Shown here piece by piece: positions 10,185 through 48,542 of a stretch of DNA of 64,000 nucleotides (its first letter is position 1; the number at the start of each line of letters is the position of its first letter). The stretch covers positions 30,938,650 to 31,002,649 of the forward strand of contig NC_134026.1 in assembly GCF_964204645.1 (NCBI RefSeq), given 5' to 3'. The notes beneath the pieces were generated by a model. It had not been told where the DNA came from. It searched no databases and saw nothing but the letters and a program-made list of their open reading frames with translations. A program made the translations under genes and the position numbers. The DNA comes from Tubulanus polymorphus. Lineage: Eukaryota > Nemertea > Palaeonemertea > Tubulaniformes > Tubulanidae.

Positions 10185-10381
10185 AAACTACACTAGCTCA
10201 AGGAATAATACATTATTCCTGAAGACAACTATACGGATATAGTCTAAACGTTGAAGTGAACTACTAGTTCAAAAACATTTCAGACTCTTTTTATTCTCAG
10301 CGTGCAGGGATTTTGTATCGTAGGTTCAGGAATTACAGGTTACAACATTATTCCTGAAGATTACAGGTTACAACATTATTC
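10185..10381 (+). mobile_element. hammerhead-like repeat copy leading into the tandem array
   Basis: Degenerate core (CTGAAGACAACTATACGGATATAG, then TAAACGTT) and family tail (AACATTTCAGACTCTTTTT) at about 10218-10310. A short duplication, GATTACAGGTTACAACATTATTCCT, follows at 10345-10381. This copy abuts the 69-bp array. Confidence 0.5.
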
Positions 10382-10762
10382 CTGAAGATGACTATTAGGA
10401 TAAAGTCGAAACGTTGAATAAACTACACTAGCTCAAGGAATACAGTATTCCTGAAGATGACTATTAGAATATAGTCGACACGTTGAATAAACTACACTAG
10501 CTCAAGGAATACAGTATTCCTGAAGATGACTATTAGAATATAGTCGACACGTTGAATAAACTACACTAGCTCAAGGAATACAGTATTCCTGAAGATGACT
10601 ATTAGAATATAGTCGACACGTTGAATAAACTACACTAGCTCAAGGAATACAGTATTCCTGAAGATGACTATTAGAATATAGTCGACACGTTGAATAAACT
10701 ACACTAGCTCAAGGAATACAGTATTCCTGAAGATGACTATTAGGATATAGTCGACACGTCGG
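10382..10762 (+). repeat. 69-bp tandem array, hammerhead-like unit, six copies (+ strand)
   Basis: Units start with CTGAAGATGACTATTAG at 10382, 10451, 10520, 10589, 10658 and 10727, an exact 69-bp period. The first unit has GTCGAAACGTT. The other five have GTCGACACGTT or GTCGACACGTC, so the GAAA core motif is broken in the amplified version. Each unit also carries GAATAAACTACACTAGCTC and GGAATACAGTATTC. Confidence 0.85.
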
Positions 10763-10796
10763 ATACACTATTAGTGTTAGAAAAAAAATATTCTCA

Positions 10797-13110: not shown

Positions 13111-13780
13111 ACATGTTTCGTCTATATTCTAATAGTCATCTTCAGGAATACTGTATTCCTTGAGCTAGTGTAGTTTATTCAACGTTTCGACTTTATCCTA
13201 ATAGTCATCTTCAGGAATACTGTATTCCTTGAGTTAGTGTAGTTTATTCAACGTTTCGACTTTATCCTAATAGTCATCTTCAGGAATACTGTATTCCTTG
13301 AGCTAGTGTAGTTTATTCAACGTTTCGACTTTATCCTAATAGTCATCTTCAGGAATACTGTATTCCTTGAGCTAGTGTAGTTTATTCAACGTTTCGACTA
13401 TATCCTAATAGTCATCTTCAGGAATACTGTATTCCTTGAGCTAGTGTAGTTTATTCAACGTTTCGACTTTATTCTAATATTCATCTTCAGGAATACTGTA
13501 TTCCTTGAGCTAGTGTAGTTTATTCAACGTTTCGACTTTATCCTAATAGTCATCTTCAGGAATACTGTATTCCTTGAGCTAGTGTAGTTTATTCAACGTT
13601 TCGACTTTATTCTAATAGTCATCTTCAGGAATACTGTATTCCTTGAGCTAGTGTAGTTTATTCAACGTTTCGACTATATCCTAATAGTCATCTTCAGGAA
13701 TACTGTATTCCTTGAGCTAGTGTAGTTTATTCAACGATTCGACTACATTCTAATAGTCATCTTCAGCAATACTCAGAATT
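13111..13780 (-). repeat. 69-bp tandem array, hammerhead-like unit, ten cores (- strand)
   Basis: TCATCTTCAG (reverse complement of the CTGAAGA core) recurs at 13136, 13205, 13274, 13343, 13412, 13481, 13550, 13619, 13688 and 13757, exactly 69 bp apart. Read on the - strand a unit is CTGAAGA-U, a stem GACU...AGUC, GAAACGUU, then GAAUAAAC. GUAUUC precedes CTGAAGA and pairs with GAAUA, giving a stem I. All units except the last (TTCGAATCG) keep the GAAAC core. The period is not a spacer/repeat structure, so it is not CRISPR. Confidence 0.85.
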
Positions 13781-33430: not shown

Positions 33431-33923
33431 TCTATTTCGACGTCTGAGAATAGCTGTTCTGCTATTGCTTTGAACTGTTGATGAAACTTGATGCTAGTTG
33501 TATGAACTTATAAATATACCGCCGATAAAGCCACTCCGTAAAACAACAGACACTAATTGTAACTTCACTAATGATCAGACCAGACTGTTTTTTTTCCTGT
33601 TACGAAATTATTTCCTAGAAATAGTTTGAATGATCCGCGAAGATCTGATGAGGTAAGATTAGTGCCTTGATCGAGTGTGTACCCTCAGGATAGCTCTTAG
33701 ATAGCTCTACTATTCATCATGTCTCTGACAGATAGTTTGCAGCCAGTAATTCCTCTTCTCCAGACGACAGTGAAAAAGGTCTTCACGAACCTTCTTCCTT
33801 CTAGTTTAAGTTTACTTCGGAAAACTTTTCGTTCACGTAATAAGTAAAAAACCCACGCCGTGTTCAAAATGTACGAGATTAAAAGCAAATATCATTATTA
33901 AAGAAATTAAAACCAAAACACAC

Positions 33924-33960
33924 GATATTTCGAACTCTCTCTAGAGACCATCGTCAGGTG
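33924..33960 (-). repeat. hammerhead-like core relic
   Basis: On the - strand CCTGACGATGGTCTCTAGAG then AGAGTTCGAAATATCG. It keeps CTGACGA and GAAA, but the GAAAC.GUC segment has drifted to GAAATATC. Confidence 0.45.
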
Positions 33961-36084
33961 TGCTGCATTCCAACGAAAAATATTCCGTTCGAAGGAAATG
34001 CTTTTCGTTCCCACGAAAAGAATATATTTATTATGAAAATGAATATATCGTAGAAAAGGGCCAAGCTGAAGGGAAAATGTGAGGGTGAATGTTTGGGAAA
34101 ATGTGATCTGAAAAGATGCAATCTCCGGCAGGATTAGAGTAAAAACGTCCAGGTTTTAAAGGCTTTCGTCTTGACAAAAAGTGCAACGTCTATTGGGAAG
34201 GCAGGGATGCGTTCCACGTGTTGTTGTGAGTTTAGAATTAAACACTTACTCAGCTCAATAACTGTTGAACTGAATCTAAAGGTTCAGACCTCCGATAATA
34301 CCCTGCACAGAACATTCTAACGACACGATATCTAAAACTTCCCCTCTCTGCCCTCGTAACCGAAACAGTCCTCATCCGGTATTAGGCGTACTTTCATCAG
34401 AAACAACGCGCGATACAAAACAAAAAAAAGGAATTGGCCAATTTTGCGAGAACAACTGAACGACGTCGCAGAGAAATGAAATTGGCGCAGCGCAAGACGA
34501 TAATAATGTGATAATGAAAGGAAGCTGACGCGCAGATTGTGCTGTTGAGATCCGAAGAAAGATTTGTCTCTGAGGTAGAAATCCAGTAATTCAAAGGTAA
34601 CCTGTCATTGGCTCATGCGTGACAGATCATGCGTTTATACCAACACCGACATAACAACATACAACATACAACATGCAACATGCAACACCCCATACAGTTA
34701 CTGTAAATCGGATTACTATTAGGGACTGCGCCCAGATTTCTACAAATTAAGTAAAATCCGAATTACGAAGAATTGTTAACACGGTTCCAGGTTAATTGGA
34801 CCAAATATTTCATCCGAATTAAATGAAAATCCGGATTTTAAAATTCTAATTATTAAGCGAGTTCTACCATACATGGCTATAAACGGGAGAATTCATGAAT
34901 TCATATACAGACCTCTTAACCGTCGATAGTAATAACTGTAATAATTGTAGGCGCCAATAATGATGAAGAGCATCCGAAAAGATGCCACCACAGACTGTTT
35001 TCAAATATATAGTAAAATCTAAAATGGAAAAATTCTTCTGATAAAATGATTTAATCATTAATATTATTACAGTTATTACCGTGATTAAGTCGGAATTAAA
35101 TGCCCACCGGGCGATAAAAAAAACCATAAAATTCAATTTAGAAAATTGTATGGTTTATAAAGCATGATTTCAAGGTTTAGACAAAAATGTATTATTATAC
35201 ATGATTATGGAATTTCATATAAAACGGATTATAAATATTCTATCAATGAAATATTGTCCAGAGTTCAACTTTCAAATTAGATCATCCATGATCAACAACT
35301 ATTTAATCAAACGTGAACAATATGAGGGCAACAAACTACGGACTTAAACACTGGCAATGACGTCACTACAATCAAGTTCAAAAGGGTCAATGCTTCAGCT
35401 CTGACATAGATAATAGAAGAAGGACGCTGCAAAGATGAATAAAAGCGACAATAGGACAATGCGAAGATCTACAAAATAAAAATACTGGCAATTTGACTCG
35501 TCAAAGGGGTTCAAAAAGTCACTGCTTCAATGGATGAAGGATTAAGGACGTTGCATAAAGCCAAATAAAAACGCAATGTCAGAGCTAGGTTCAAAAAAGT
35601 CACTGCCGAAATAAATGTGTTATGATGAAGGTGAATGTGATCACGTAATCCAACGACTGGATGGCGCATCACAAGCGTGAACATTGATCTGTGATAGATG
35701 ATGAATTCTGTTTGGCTGATAAATGCCCTGTCCAGTTTATATCACCCATTTGGCAACTGACAACATCTACGCCGGCGTCAAAGCTTATACCAAGCGCATG
35801 ATTCTAGATATGAAATTTGATGGATACGATTGCGCAGAGACTATTCGCAAATCAGTGACTGACCCTCCATCGCTTTCTGAGCTACATCAATACATCAATT
35901 TTTTCATATATCATGAGTAAATGTAAAGACAGATCGTATTTTGAAGGTTAACTTGATTTTATCAAGTACGAGCTTTCACTTCAAGTGTGAGCAGTAGCTT
36001 ACATTCATTTACTCGATGAGAAGATGATTCACGTTGTGTTAATCTGGTGTAGAATTAATACAACCAGACCAGTAGTACCTGATC

Positions 36085-38743: not shown

Positions 38744-39555
38744 GTGCTTTGTGTCCAAGTTGTTACATACCAGAAATGGCTTTTAAGATATTTTTCTGGC
38801 TGGGATATTGTAACAGTACAATGAACCCTATAATCTACGCCTGTTCGAGTCGCGAATTCAAGCGAGCTTTCAAGCGAATCCTGCGCTGTCAATTTCGGCG
38901 ACGTCCTCGTAAGTTTCTGGATACCGCAGCCGAACCGAGTACATCAACTACCGAGATTTGTCGTTTATCGGTCGCTAATAGCAGCCGACATAAATCGAGT
39001 CCCGATTCGGAACGCGGACCTTTGCGCTGGTCGATGAAAAAGAGTTTCAGTAGCCATTTTCCCGGTAGTCGTAGGTCGTCGTTGGAAGATTCGCCGATTT
39101 TACCGTTAAGGCAAATCCTCGAACGTTCTTCGTCATCGTCGAGAAAACGGACGGGGAACGAAACGCTCAAACTGGACGAGGATGACGTTTATAACGGCGA
39201 TAACTCTGACGACGAGAAACAATCGGATTCGTTGAGTCCATCGAATTCGAAACATACATCGCTTAGTCACGTGAGCACTCCTCCGAGAAGTTTAAACGCT
39301 AGCAATAGCGGTAATTTTAACGGTTTGTGTCCCGGTAAAACCCCTCTTCCCGGCACGGGAGCGGCCGTTAACGGTCGCGTTAAACGTGGTTCCGGCGTCA
39401 TTAATTTCAGCAGTCATAAAATACCCGATATAAAGGTGCATAGTGCGGAAAATTGTTCAAGCGAAGCCAGATCTACTGTCGATGTGTCCTCTGAGAAACA
39501 TGCGGGAATCAGTAATCAGTTGCGGATGCCAAGAGCTAGGAGTCATTACTGGTGA
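38744..39555 (+). CDS. alpha-1-adrenergic-like amine GPCR, exon 2 (TM7 and C-tail)
   Basis: Follows the acceptor TATTTTGTAG and completes Gly368. It encodes ECL3 ([12 protein letters not shown]), TM7 ([17 protein letters not shown], with NPIIY at 395-399), helix 8 ([15 protein letters not shown], possible palmitoylation at C416) and a long Ser-rich tail to residue 637 (TGA 39553-39555). [20 protein letters not shown] is the alpha-1-adrenergic TM7/helix-8 signature. The tail is rich in Ser and acidic clusters, plausible kinase and arrestin sites. Exon 1 plus exon 2 gives 1914 nt, exactly 638 codons. The tail is longer than in human ADRA1A. Confidence 0.93.
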
Positions 39556-40442: not shown

Positions 40443-41270
40443 TCACTGTTCTAAGTTGTTAACTTTTTCACGAAATGTTTCAATGTTTTCTATCAGCGAT
40501 TCGAGGAATTTAACACGATTTTCTAAATCCATTAATTTCTCGCTCAGTGGTTTATTCGACGTTACAGGAGTCAAAGGCTCCTCGGTTGGTGCTGGAGTAG
40601 AGGGCTCCTCGGTTGGTGCTGGAGTAGCGGGCTCCTCGGTTGGTGCTGGAGTAGCGGGCTCCTCGGTTGGTGCTGGAGTAGCGGGGTCCTCGGTTGGTGC
40701 TGGGGTAGAGGGCTCCTCGGTTGGTGCTGGGGTAGAAGGCTCCTCGGTTGGTGCTGGAGTAGCGGGCTACTCGGTTGGTGCTGGGGCAGAGGGCTCCTCG
40801 GTTGGTGCTGGAGTAGAGGGCTCCTCGGTTGGTGCTGGAGTCGAAGGCTCCGCTGTTGGCGGTGTTCGAGTCGCATATCCTCTGATGCAAGGTTCACTAT
40901 CCCGAAAATGGCTACAGTTCATTTTTTCTGGCCATTGAAATCCGAGCGTGTCACAACCATTTCTAGCAAGTTCACAGAGTGATTTACACGGTGGTTCAGA
41001 AGAACAAGGTGGTGCGTACATAGCGCATAGAAACTCCCTTAAATTCGGACTGCATCTCACCTTAACCAACGGAAATAACTGATGTAACTCCAGACCTGCT
41101 TCTTCTTGGTTTTGATGATGAAAACTATTCGGCATTTTTGTTTTATCGTACGACAATCCTACTTTACATAGTGGTATCTGTATACGCTCACAAGTTTCAC
41201 GTCTGTTGATGTAGACACTTTCATTAACACCAAAATAAAACATTAGCATCAAAATCCAAATCAGAGACAT
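40443..41270 (-). pseudogene. secreted Frizzled-CRD protein with repeat stalk and coiled coil, interrupted by one TAG
   Basis: The start ATG (41268-41270) opens a signal peptide ([13 protein letters not shown]), then a Fz cysteine-rich domain with exactly ten cysteines (27, 35, 73, 82, 89, 95, 99, 106, 119, 128). It carries the hallmarks [38 protein letters not shown] and [10 protein letters not shown]. Fz domains bind Wnt lipids; a secreted form could act as a Wnt antagonist (inference). A TPAPTEEP(S/A) 9-residue stalk follows. At codon 168 (40767-40769) GAG has become TAG. The frame then stays open for 107 codons: more stalk, a VTSNKPLSEKL linker and a C-terminal coiled coil (LENRVKFLESL and IENIETFREKV), with TGA at 40443-40445. 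The intact length would be 275 residues. If the TAG is real, a 167-residue CRD with short stalk is made. It may be a polymorphism or sequencing error rather than a true pseudogene. It is convergent with the adrenergic-like gene. Confidence 0.8.
40571..40868 (-). repeat. 27-bp coding minisatellite (TPAPTEEPx), about ten units
   Basis: The in-frame 27-bp unit encodes nine residues, as expected for a mucin-like, probably O-glycosylated stalk. Units differ mainly at Ser/Ala (GAG/GCG context) and once at Glu/Asp (GGGTCC, 40682). One unit carries the TAG at 40767-40769. The period keeps the frame, so copy-number changes would alter stalk length without frameshift. Confidence 0.85.
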
Positions 41271-42285: not shown

Positions 42286-43311
42286 TCATCTTCGACAAGA
42301 ATTGTAAACTTGATTTCTGAATTTATCATTAGTTGAAACGTAGATGAAAAAATTACAATAAGAGTTGATTTTTGACATGACGCCCCCGAAAGCAGAAAGA
42401 GCAAGTTGATTGGAGAAAAGTTCCTTGAATTTTCGTCTGATTTCACCAGTGCCTAACCTGGCATCTACGTGATGTAAGGCGTGGGGTATTTCCAGTAATA
42501 CAAATACCACGATTACAACCAGCGCCGTCTTAGTCGCCGCAAAGTCGTCATTTTTAACTTCTTTCTCAGGTTTTTGAACGAGTGTTTTACGTTCTTTGTT
42601 GATCGTATGAATTTTAGCGATGATAAAAGTGTTCGTTATCAGTAGAATGATCATCGGGACAAATGATTCCATCGAGGGCGTCACGATCCCTAGATAACGG
42701 CGTTTAATATCACCCGTGAAAGATCTCATCAACCAACCCGGTTGACCATACGGACATTTCTTCTCCACGTAAACCACTCCTTTATACAAAAAATTCATAA
42801 TACACAAACCCGCTAAACAAGTTATCAAAGTTAGTAAGGTGATGTTACAATTATATTTTGTCAGCCAAAGTCGCGACCTCAGCGGATGGAATATCTTTAT
42901 AAAACGTTCGATACCCAGTAAAGCTACCATGTTGTTGCGAATATATTTGGTGAAATGTCGTAAGGGTTGAGCTGCGAAGTGAACAAACGGAAAAATCGAC
43001 GCGCTTGGCACTCGTACCAATTCAGCACCGTAGATCATAACGCCGATTACGTAATGCATCTGTTCGGCTATGAAAGTCGCGAGTAAAAATGCTATATCGG
43101 CAAGACTAGCAATTTCCAGTAGATAGTACAACGAATGAAATTGTTGAATTTGAATTCTGCGCAGAATCACGAAACTGACGCCGTCTAAAATACACGCCAC
43201 AACGACCAACGGAAAATTGATATAAACTTGAAGAATGAATTTGTGAGCGATATTTTTCGGCGGGCAGTTGAATTCAGGTTGGACCGTAGATACGTTAGAA
43301 GTAAGATCCAT
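42286..43311 (-). CDS. orphan class-A (peptide-receptor-like) GPCR, intronless
   Basis: A 341-residue seven-helix protein with a single N-terminal sequon (N6). TM1 is about 25-50, TM2 61-84 with D72 (SLADIAFLL), TM3 105-137 ending ERF (135-137) instead of DRY, TM4 155-176, ECL2 with C186, TM5 208-234 with P219, TM6 260-281 with LEIPHAL (P276) in place of CWxP, and TM7 304-324 with NSYCNFFIY (316-324). The NSxxNFxIY form is typical of the FMRFamide-receptor-like branch of invertebrate neuropeptide receptors. No cysteine is present at the TM3 top, so the usual TM3-ECL2 disulfide cannot form. TM1 also lacks the conserved Asn. ATG 43309-43311 is the first Met; the stop is TGA 42286-42288. Ligand and coupling are unknown. 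It has the same orientation as the Fz-CRD gene, 1.0 kb apart. Confidence 0.85.
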   Translation of the reverse strand: MDLTSNVSTVQPEFNCPPKNIAHKFILQVYINFPLVVVACILDGVSFVILRRIQIQQFHSLYYLLEIASLADIAFLLATFIAEQMHYVIGVMIYGAELVRVPSASIFPFVHFAAQPLRHFTKYIRNNMVALLGIERFIKIFHPLRSRLWLTKYNCNITLLTLITCLAGLCIMNFLYKGVVYVEKKCPYGQPGWLMRSFTGDIKRRYLGIVTPSMESFVPMIILLITNTFIIAKIHTINKERKTLVQKPEKEVKNDDFAATKTALVVIVVFVLLEIPHALHHVDARLGTGEIRRKFKELFSNQLALSAFGGVMSKINSYCNFFIYVSTNDKFRNQVYNSCRR

Positions 43312-43985: not shown

Positions 43986-44120
43986 GTTTCAAATCGTATT
44001 ACGCCAATGATTTATATTTGTGACTGTGCATTTAAAACTAATTGCCTTTAGTAGAGTTATCTTACTAGAAGATACACGTAGAAAAGATGTAATTACGCTA
44101 TCAACCATTTCAATGGTTAA

Positions 44121-44283
44121 AAAGATTAAAACCCACTATTAAACCCACTATAAAATAAACACCTGACGATGATCTCTAGGGTGAGATCGAAACGTCGTGT
44201 TTATTTTATATTTTAGATTGTTCGAATAAATAAATTCTTGATTTTAAATTCTTTTAATCTGTAGATAGTGGGTTTTAATCTTT
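44121..44283 (+). mobile_element. compact foldback element with complete hammerhead-like fold
   Basis: Terminal arms 44121-44139 and 44265-44283 are 19-bp perfect inverted repeats (AAAGATTAAAACCCACTAT). Inside, 44150-44162 and 44197-44209 form a perfect 13-bp stem I (ATAAAATAAACAC/GTGTTTATTTTAT). It flanks CTGACGA (44163-44169), U, GATCTC/GAGATC stem II (44171-44176/44183-44188) and GAAAC-GTC (44189-44196). This is the layout of a type I hammerhead. The departures are one extra U before stem II and no loop on stem III (ACGU is self-complementary). No protein is encoded. Confidence 0.75.
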
Positions 44284-44551
44284 GTATCCGTTCACCACGT
44301 TTGAGTGTGGATATCGTACTGTTTCAATGGTGTTTGTATGAGGAAGAAAACCAGTTTACAAAAACACATGAATAAAAACATTAAGTATTTTAGTTGTAGC
44401 TTTTTTGTGTCCGTCGATGTCTTTAACTTCATGTAATGTGGATAAAGTTTAGGGAAACGACACTTAAATGGCAAATAATTAGAATTGTTGAGGGGATCAT
44501 GTGCAACAATTAATATGATCTCTGATGGATAACATCTACATCCACTTCCAG

Positions 44552-47390: not shown

Positions 47391-47518
47391 CTGCTGCTCC
47401 TTCGATATATTGTTCATAAAAACTCTGCTGCTCCTTAGATATATTGTTTGTAAACTCGGCTAATCCCGCATATATTGTTTGTTAACTTTGCTGCTCCTTC
47501 GATTGTTGCTGGTTAGTA
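47391..47518 (+). repeat. degenerate ~55-bp repeat leading into VNTR
   Basis: CTGCTGCTCCTTCGATATAT, TGTTCATAAAAACT and variants occur about three times before the 18-bp array. Confidence 0.5.
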
Positions 47519-48345
47519 GACTCTCGGCTGGTGGTAGACTCTCGGCTGGTGGTAGACTCTCGGCTGGTGGTAGACTCTCGGCTGGTGGTAGACTCTCGGC
47601 TGGTAGTAGACTCTCGGCTGGTAGTAGACTCTCGGCTGGTGGTAGACTCTCGGCTGGTAGTAGACTCTCGGCTGGTGGTAGACTCTCGGCTGGTAGTAGA
47701 CTCTCGACTGGTAGTAGACTCTCGGCTGGTGGTAGACTCTCGGCTGGTGGTAGACTCTGGACTGGTGGTAGACTCTCGGCTGGTGGTAGACTCTCGGCTG
47801 GTGGTAGACTCTCGGCTGGTGGTAGACTCTCGGCTGGTAGTAGACTCTCGGCTGGTAGTAGACTCTCGGCTGGTGGTAGACTCTCGGCTGGTAGTAGACT
47901 CTCGGCTGGTGGTAGACTCTCGGCTGGTAGTAGACTCTCGACTGGTGGTAGACTCTCGGCTGGTGGTAGACTCTCGGCTGGTGGTAGACTCTCGGCTGGT
48001 GGTAGACTCTCGGCTGGTGGTAGACTCTCGGCTGGTGGTAGACTCTCGGCTGGTGGTAGACTCTCGGCTGGTGGTAGACTCTCGGCTGGTGGTAGACTCT
48101 CGGCTGGTGGTAGACTCTCGGTTGGTAGTAGACTCTCGACTGGTAGTAGACTCTCGGCTGGTGGTAGACTCTCGGCTGGTGGTAGACTCTCGGCTGGTGG
48201 TAGACTCTCGGCTGGTGGTAGACTCTCGGCTGGTGGTAGACTCTCGGTTGGTAGTAGACTCTCGACTGGTAGTAGACTCTCGGCTGGTGGTAGACTCTCG
48301 GTTGGTGGTAGACTCTCGGCTGGTGGTAGACTCTTGGCTATAGAA
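47519..48345. repeat. 18-bp VNTR, about 46 copies
   Basis: The unit is GACTCTCGGCTGGTGGTA with a GGTAGTA variant and rare CTCGAC, CTCGGT and CTGGAC forms. Because 18 is a multiple of three and the unit contains no stop in several frames, long open frames exist on both strands (TTSRES, PPAESL, LVVDSR repeats). None has a plausible non-repeat domain. Variant units occur in blocks (GGTTGGTAGTAGACTCTCGA at about 48120 and 48246), which indicates higher-order duplication. Confidence 0.9.
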
Positions 48346-48542
48346 AAATGACGATGCAAAATATATCAATAAAATTCGATGAGATATTACTGCTTGGATA
48401 AAACATTTAATCTAATAATGAAATCGAAATTTCTTACCATAGAATTAACTAGAAACCATGACCTTTCTTCAGTCTTATTGTGGTTACACTATTGTCTCTG
48501 CTGCTCCTAAACTGAATTCTGCCATTACTGAACGTCACTGCA

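What the first reader, a model, noticed from the sequence alone, without database searches (positions are those of the whole stretch)
44121..44283. Compact foldback element carrying a near-complete type I hammerhead-like ribozyme
The sequence directly shows a perfect 13-bp stem I, CTGACGA, a perfect 6-bp stem II and GAAAC-GTC, all inside 19-bp perfect terminal inverted repeats. Known type I hammerheads have CUGANGA / stem II / GAAA / stem III / UH flanked by stem I, and are reported in Penelope-like elements and retrozymes with minimal stem III. Two features argue for caution: an extra U between CTGACGA and stem II in every family member, and a loopless stem III (ACGU). The latter would require dimeric folding. 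The pairing of ribozyme stem I with outer arms in a 163-bp element looks unusual.
Basis: partly seen in the sequence, partly recalled or inferred. Interest (0 to 1): 0.75.

Follow-up and report, generated by a model that had tools for sequence, protein, structure and literature searches.

The report
Penelope retroelement scrap with minimal hammerhead
The foldback is a short, dead insertion of a Penelope-like retrotransposon whose end carries a known kind of minimal hammerhead ribozyme; its inverted ends look like a by-product of how such elements insert, not a ribozyme design.

Summary
The motif is real, but the setting was misread. The element is 44118-44321 with a 10-bp target-site duplication, not 44121-44283. 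It is the terminal region (pLTR) of a Penelope-like element (PLE): the same unit adjoins RVT_1 ORFs in 5 of 5 family A relatives tested, and two related families have RVT_1 plus GIY-YIG. A pattern for the minimal hammerhead core with its extra U matches 3,888 times in this genome (reversed control 1). In rows chosen for an intact core, stems I and II change by compensatory substitution between families. PLE hammerheads lacking helix III are published, so this is a new member of a known kind. The long stem I is private: 14 bp here, 0-7 in 113 other motifs. The foldback reflects head-to-head insertion: in 59 of 61 classifiable pairs the arms end at two different sites, about 33-35 nt apart. This favours priming from both DNA ends over published self-priming. 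Inserted 5' ends cluster near a predicted transcription start, not at the ribozyme cut (0 of 164, families A-C). Side finding: 69-bp tandem hammerhead arrays biased to chromosome ends, two in this window. Catalysis is untested.

The parts
44118..44321 (+). whole PLE pLTR insertion (204 bp): short inverted arm, sense arm, tail
   Evidence: exact 10-bp flanking duplication; homology to PLE ends
44108..44117 (.). target-site duplication, left copy TTTCAATGGT
44322..44331 (.). target-site duplication, right copy TTTCAATGGT
44118..44139 (-). outer part of the inverted arm, no tail (BLAST match 44112-44139 = reference 167-194; its first 6 bases fall in the duplication)
44141..44158 (-). scrambled inner part of the inverted arm: repeat of AAACCCACTAT, then (44149-44162) the reverse complement of this copy's own 44197-44210, joined to the sense arm through ACAC
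   Evidence: parsed by eye
44159..44319 (+). sense arm, reference 61-221, 96% identical, with the tail
44159..44162 (+). stem I 5' strand ACAC (family A stem, 4 bp); predicted transcription start (A of TCA in relatives) at its first base, inferred
   Evidence: promoter reading by eye
44163..44169 (+). CUGACGA core
44170..44170 (+). extra U between A9 and stem II
44171..44188 (+). stem II GATCTC/GAGATC with loop TAGGGT
44189..44196 (+). GAAA, self-complementary ACGU (loopless stem III), C17; predicted cut 44196|44197
   Evidence: cut site inferred
44197..44200 (+). stem I 3' strand GTGT
44287..44319 (+). 33-nt tail with AC-rich hairpin CCAC..GTGG (44295-44310), between the two inferred RT start sites (about 44286 and 44319)
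   Evidence: PMC11167929
36079..36208 (+). second family A copy, single arm, core mutated (CTTACCA), 14-bp duplication with one mismatch
33918..33963 (-). third, diverged hammerhead copy
10373..10770 (+). 69-bp tandem array of minimal hammerheads, 5.8 units; five units have GACA instead of GAAA
13115..13773 (-). 69-bp tandem array of minimal hammerheads, 9.6 units; 8 of 10 model matches have both core boxes intact

Best explanation
The feature is a short, non-autonomous insertion of a Penelope-like retrotransposon. Its sense arm is the 5' part of the pLTR: a minimal type I hammerhead without helix III, a leader, and an AC-rich tail hairpin. Shown: homology, duplication, PLE ORFs next to the same unit, covariation, and the two-end rule. 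Inferred: transcripts start at a TATA/Inr just 5' of stem I. The PLE protein cuts both target strands, and each broken end primes a cDNA on the RNA, one at the near site (about reference 188) and one at the far site (221). The cDNAs meet head to head, one or both cut short, giving inverted ends with exactly one tail. Here the second cDNA was reduced to small scraps, which happened to lengthen stem I to 14 bp. The ribozyme probably works, if at all, on tandem PLE transcripts as a dimer through ACGU/ACGU and perhaps with the protein; this copy is a dead end.
For: Relatives: 64 matches in 40 scored of 1,455 candidates. The same unit lies just past PLE ORFs; RVT_1 above the Pfam cut-off in 5 of 5 family A ORFs, RVT_1 and GIY-YIG in 2 of 2 ORFs of families B and C. 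Core: 3,888 matches against 1 reversed; intact in 107 of 118 arms spanning it. Model R1, built without the window copy, scores it 70.3 bits. Covariation: 89.9% of cells paired against 70.9% in shuffles, score 0.583 against 0.233 and at most 0.140 when slid; stem II 97.6% and stem I 78.3% paired. Head to head: 69 of 77 neighbouring same-family arms within 700 bp are -+. Two-end rule: 59 of 61 classifiable pairs near+far, 0 far+far, 8 more not classifiable; explore set 23/24, later test set 36/37, p 5.5e-10. Exact duplications of 10 bp or more in 47 of 69 pairs, mode 12-13. 5' ends, families A-C: 95 of 164 at reference 51-70, 0 at the cut 96-102; 3'-anchored sample 20 of 31 at 53-69.
Against: No activity or transcript data. 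Rfam finds no hammerhead in the window or five other loci. Pfam finds GIY-YIG in 0 of 5 family A ORFs at E 0.01; there the domain rests on similarity to families B and C (48%). Counts of two mixed pair types (shuffled 7.9 against 8 observed; further types 22.4 against 21) do not favour the structure, though the small family set does (3.2 against 8). An alternative hairpin, GANG:CGUY, is 95.7% paired in the same alignment (slide +2) and appears in the predicted fold of 5 of 6 sequences, so the monomer may be inactive. This copy's own inverted scrap ends at reference 99-102, at the predicted cut; I read it as ACAC microhomology, but one processed template cannot be excluded. Two of 61 pairs are near+near by the script; on reading both hold remnants of the tail's far end, a judgement made after the fact. 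No exact repeat of 7 bp or more was found at 12 of 69 pairs. The PAc paper saw no strand difference in RT start in vitro. Family D was left out of the 5'-end count because its reference starts at 57; with it 1 of 188 falls at the cut.
Confidence: 0.87

Rival explanations
1. Self-priming: the head-to-head arms arise by snap-back of one cDNA or from an antisense template, as proposed for A. vaga Penelope (PMC3846280), rather than by two priming events.
For: In some pairs (L032, L091) the arms share one hammerhead hairpin, as a palindromic turn-around would. Partner arms are more alike than other arms (94.5% against 90.0%, 94 arms), which also fits one RNA.
Against: A snap-back copy should end where the first arm ends; 59 of 61 pairs end at two different fixed sites. 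Near and far arms are about equally long (median starts 61 and 63).
Confidence: 0.12
2. A conserved hairpin, for protein binding or priming, that only resembles a hammerhead; no catalysis in the element's life.
For: The alternative hairpin is 95.7% paired (slide +2) and is in the predicted fold of 5 of 6 members. No insertions of families A-C start at the cut. In PAc, ribozyme mutants still insert and no RNA ends were detected at the cut.
Against: The alternative does not explain the conserved CU, A and GAA nor the free N7 (C 56, T 26, A 25 of 107); family B (A7) breaks it; it shows no pair with changes on both sides, while stems I and II do. PAc RNA with this kind of motif does cleave when protein is added.
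Confidence: 0.2
3. A foldback/MITE DNA transposon with terminal inverted repeats that captured a hammerhead by chance.
For: Perfect inverted ends and a short duplication in this copy.
Against: The two ends differ by a tail in 59 of 61 classifiable pairs, arms are truncated at many places, exact duplications range from 10 to 17 bp, and the same unit adjoins PLE ORFs.
Confidence: 0.02

Closest known systems
Minimal type I hammerheads of Penelope-like elements (Cervera & De la Pena 2014; Lunse et al. 2017; neither is held here: known through passages of PMC7761336 and PMC6155905 and through reference lists)
   Same: Position in the pLTR, hammerhead core, helix III missing, proposed dimeric action, thousands of copies in animal genomes
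   Different: Whether the extra U is general in the published set could not be checked; the window copy has a private 14-bp stem I
PAc/Poseidon PLE of Anolis carolinensis (PMC11167929, main text read)
   Same: RT plus GIY-YIG ORF, hammerhead by the ORF start, AC-rich stem-loop, tail between two RT start sites, both DNA strands cut and extended
   Different: Here genomic pairs use one site per arm in 59 of 61 cases; in vitro no strand difference was seen
Penelope elements of Adineta vaga (PMC3846280, passages read)
   Same: Inverted pLTRs, 31-bp tail on one of them, TATA box and Inr-like site, short target-site duplications, head-to-head arrangement
   Different: Very many short copies here; the data favour dual priming over the self-priming proposed there
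Non-LTR retrozymes of animals (PMC7229834, passages read)
   Same: Tandem type I hammerheads, for the 69-bp arrays only
   Different: Known RNAs about 170-400 nt with canonical hammerheads; here 69 bp and minimal; no circular RNA shown

Membership tests
Type I hammerhead, canonical | CUGANGA, GAAA, UH core | tested here: met
   107 of 118 arms spanning it
Type I hammerhead, canonical | stems I and II, kept by compensatory change | tested here: met
   stem II 97.6%, stem I 78.3% paired
Type I hammerhead, canonical | helix III closed by a loop | tested here: not met
   ACGU without a loop; CGT follows GAAA in 103 of 107 intact-core arms
Type I hammerhead, canonical | stem II directly after A9 | tested here: not met
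   extra U in the window copy and in 105 of 107 intact-core arms
Type I hammerhead, canonical | match to Rfam hammerhead models | tested here: not met
   window and five loci
PLE-type minimal hammerhead | core without helix III, located in PLE pLTRs | tested here: met
   definition from PMC7761336
PLE-type minimal hammerhead | self-cleavage as dimer or with protein | not testable with these tools
   needs bench work
Penelope-like element (window copy as a derivative) | RT in ORFs adjoining the same unit | tested here: met
   RVT_1 in 5 of 5 family A ORFs
Penelope-like element (window copy as a derivative) | GIY-YIG endonuclease in those ORFs | tested here: inconclusive
   Pfam 0 of 5 in family A; 2 of 2 in families B and C, whose copies match the family A C-terminal query at about 48% identity
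Penelope-like element (window copy as a derivative) | pLTR with tail, inverted partial arm, target-site duplication | tested here: met
Retrozyme | two or more sense hammerheads bounding a monomer | tested here: not met
   one sense core in the window element
Foldback/MITE DNA transposon | same ends on both sides | tested here: not met
   one tail per pair in 59 of 61
Foldback/MITE DNA transposon | transposase-bearing relative | not tested
   no transposase search was made

The most novel reading that the evidence does not exclude
The same minimal PLE hammerhead has been amplified into 69-bp tandem arrays concentrated near chromosome ends (two in this window). In such arrays neighbours can form the nested double hammerhead that single copies cannot, so array transcripts would be cut into 69-nt RNAs, possibly circles: a retrozyme-like satellite several times smaller than those described in the papers seen here.
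Probability: 0.15. Interest if true: 0.7.

Novelty: new member of a known kind. Interest (0 to 1): 0.42.

Why it matters
It explains a puzzling foldback as ordinary PLE debris. It shows that one genome holds thousands of matches to a hammerhead core of a kind that Rfam's models missed wherever they were tried here. And it offers a genomic test of an open question, how PLEs make head-to-head inserts and optional tails: one near and one far end per insertion points to priming from both DNA ends.

Tried and rejected
Rfam search of the segment, the window and five other loci: no hammerhead. Weak snoRNA and other matches are taken as chance; miRNA-precursor matches of head-to-head loci (below the curated scores) as palindromes.

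Foldback DNA transposon: rejected (unequal ends, PLE linkage); no transposase search was made.

Ribozyme-cut RNA as insertion template: tested, no enrichment at the cut (0 of 164 arms of families A-C; 1 of 188 with family D).

Core conservation in the 69-bp arrays as evidence of selection: 133 units, mean variation 0.014 in the core against 0.030 elsewhere, p 0.42. The arrays were chosen by intact cores, so the test is biased and gives no support.

Double-hammerhead fold of two 69-nt units: possible and nested, but -16.9 against -25.1 kcal/mol for the best fold.

First indexing of the alternative hairpin was off by two columns; the right register is the +2 slide.

Telomere link: no array of TTAGGG repeats in the last 4,149 bases of contig C3, beside which an array lies.

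Organism: a COX1 search gave nothing, the rRNA search failed; species not identified. Three short frames from L039 gave no Pfam match. The family B ORF has no relative in the PDB by sequence at E 0.01. The L040 stretch holds no frame of 100 aa.

Full report
Observation. The fold is far below shuffled sequence (z -9.9). But the element is larger. A perfect 10-bp duplication, TTTCAATGGT, lies at 44108-44117 and 44322-44331, so the insertion is 44118-44321, 204 bp.

What it is. A search of the window's own genome (268 Mb, 77 contigs; the window is C2:30938650-31002649) gave 64 matches among 40 scored of 1,455 candidates. I fetched 38 places from that list. One sense arm (L009) lies just after a coding end that reads like a PLE C-terminus with a GIY-YIG-like stretch. 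A protein search with that piece gave 150 matches among 150 scored of 565 candidates, many in long open frames. Seven full or partial elements were fetched. In the five of family A (L041-L043, L046, L047) the unit lies within about 20-135 nt past the ORF end, and families B (L044) and C (L045) have the same kind of hammerhead on both sides of the ORF. Pfam finds RVT_1 above its cut-off in 5 of 5 family A ORFs, but GIY-YIG in none of them at E 0.01; ORFs of B (833 aa) and C (817 aa) have both. Three short L039 frames gave no Pfam match. So the window element is a piece of a Penelope-like element; for family A the endonuclease rests on similarity to B and C.

Is it a hammerhead? The pattern CTGANGAT-N14-22-GAAACGTY occurs 3,888 times, its reversed control once. 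A like pattern with a non-T in the extra place and a spacer one shorter gives 146 (control 12), part of which are plainly unrelated sequences. Of 118 arms spanning the motif, 107 have both core boxes; 105 of these have the extra T, 103 have CGT after GAAA, and N7 is C in 56, T in 26 and A in 25. Many of these arms were fetched through the core pattern, so this is not an unbiased estimate. In 76 distinct 46-mers chosen by exact CTGANGA and GAAA (which biases the core but not the stems), stems I and II are 89.9% paired against 70.9% in shuffles, with covariation score 0.583 against 0.233; slid versions reach at most 0.140. Two of the five measures there (pairs with double changes, further pair types) do not exceed the shuffles; in the six-row family set four of five measures exceed every shuffle. 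Stem II changes from GATCTC/GAGATC (A) to GACTAT/ATAGTC (B), GGCTAA/TTAGCC (C) and GGCTGT/ACAGCC (D). An alternative hairpin, GANG with CGUY, is 95.7% paired (slide +2) but has no pair changed on both sides, and family B breaks it. It is in the predicted fold of 5 of 6 sequences, so the monomer may well be inactive. Rfam finds no hammerhead in the window or in five other loci. A model built from the 76 rows, which do not include the window copy, scores the window copy 70.3 bits and finds 28 places in the window at E below 0.01.

Why the foldback. Neighbouring arms of one family within 700 bp are head to head in 69 of 77 cases; many loci were picked because two matches lay close together, so this is not the share of paired insertions in the genome. 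3' ends fall into two classes about 33-35 nt apart in the four families mapped. Of the 69 head-to-head pairs 61 could be classified; 59 have one end of each class, two are near+near and none far+far. I noticed this on L001-L038 (23 of 24) and then tested it on loci fetched later, L048-L107 (36 of 37). The two exceptions, L032 and L098, contain pieces of the tail's far end on reading; that is a judgement after the fact. Exact duplications of 10 bp or more were found in 47 of 69 pairs, mode 12-13; in 12 no exact repeat of 7 bp or more was found. In the window copy the inverted arm ends at reference 194 (near) and the sense arm at 221 (far).

Mechanism. The PAc study found that the enzyme cuts and extends both DNA strands and starts RT at two sites bounding the tail, with no strand difference (main text read; its supplement not seen). 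The A. vaga study noted a tail on one of the inverted pLTRs and proposed self-priming (passages). My counts favour two separate primings, one per site, since a snap-back arm should end where its partner ends. This is inference from genomic copies. Partner arms are more alike (94.5%) than other arms (90.0%; 94 arms), which fits one RNA or RNAs of one source.

5' ends. For families A-C, 95 of 164 arms start at reference 51-70, 32 upstream, 11 at 71-95, 26 at 103 or beyond and 0 at 96-102, the ribozyme cut. Family D was left out because its reference begins at 57; with it 1 of 188 arms falls at the cut. In the sample anchored at the 3' end (33 matches; 31 used, the window and one unfetched place left out) 20 of 31 start at 53-69 and none between 92 and 108. 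In A, B and C a TATA-like stretch lies about 30 nt before this point, with an Inr-like TCA (read by eye; PMC3846280 reports a TATA box and Inr-like site in A. vaga). So templates seem to begin at a start site just before stem I and were mostly not cut by the 5' hammerhead. This agrees with PAc, where ribozyme mutants inserted normally. Against this, the window's own inverted scrap ends at reference 99-102; I read that as ACAC microhomology between the stem I strands.

The window copy's long stem I. TATAAAATAA before ACAC is the reverse complement of this copy's own TTATTTTATA after GTGT. In 113 other intact-core motifs the contiguous stem is 0-7 bp, mostly 3-4; here it is 14. It is a remnant of the second arm, so it says nothing about ribozyme design. 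The element has one sense core, so it cannot dimerise in cis.

Prior knowledge. That PLEs carry minimal type I hammerheads without helix III, perhaps acting as dimers, and that many animal genomes hold thousands of them, is in PMC7761336, PMC6155905 and PMC7229834 (passages). The primary papers (PMC4209133, PMC5785218) are not held. That a viroid hammerhead has an extra residue between A9 and stem II is recalled only. I saw no paper with the one-near-one-far count in the listings, which cover open-licence papers only.

Side finding. The window holds 69-bp tandem arrays of family-B-like hammerheads at 10373-10770 and 13115-13773. Genome-wide the unit junction occurs 1,142 times (control 0), and intact tandem pairs 735 times (control 0). 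Only the first 100 places of each are listed. The 21 clusters among the listed pairs (contigs C1-C6) lie 0-2.6 Mb from contig ends, and 16 clusters of a variant listed in full (33 places) 0.3-3.5 Mb; 0 of 20,000 uniform draws were as close in either set. Contigs C1-C12 are taken as chromosomes and clusters as independent, both assumptions. Arrays give neighbours that could pair as a double hammerhead, but the best predicted fold differs, a core-dead unit is itself amplified in the window, no selection on the core was seen, and no telomere repeat was seen at the end of C3.

Noticed in passing
window 10373-10770 (+) and 13115-13773 (-): 69-bp tandem arrays of minimal hammerheads; the genome holds over a thousand such unit junctions, and the clusters listed are biased to contig ends.
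   Followed up: partly
window 10445-10766: Five array units share GACA instead of GAAA: a core-dead unit was amplified.
   Followed up: partly
L048, L071, L073, L074: Extra copies of about reference 57-90 (hammerhead 5' part to the end of stem II) sit between or beside arms, as if the polymerase jumped at stem II.
   Followed up: no
L049, L052: Head-to-head pLTR pairs give Rfam miRNA-precursor matches with low E-values but below the curated scores, some on both strands: a likely false-positive source.
   Followed up: no
window 42286-43311 (-) and 38749-39555 (+): Open frames that look like parts of seven-transmembrane receptors (by eye).
   Followed up: no
window 40767-41270 (-): Open frame resembling a Frizzled-type cysteine-rich domain (by eye).
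   Followed up: no
window 47460-48369: Long minisatellite-like stretch, open in several frames on both strands.
   Followed up: no
L002 594-745: A second, diverged PLE end (68% to family A) lies right beside the family A insertion.
   Followed up: no
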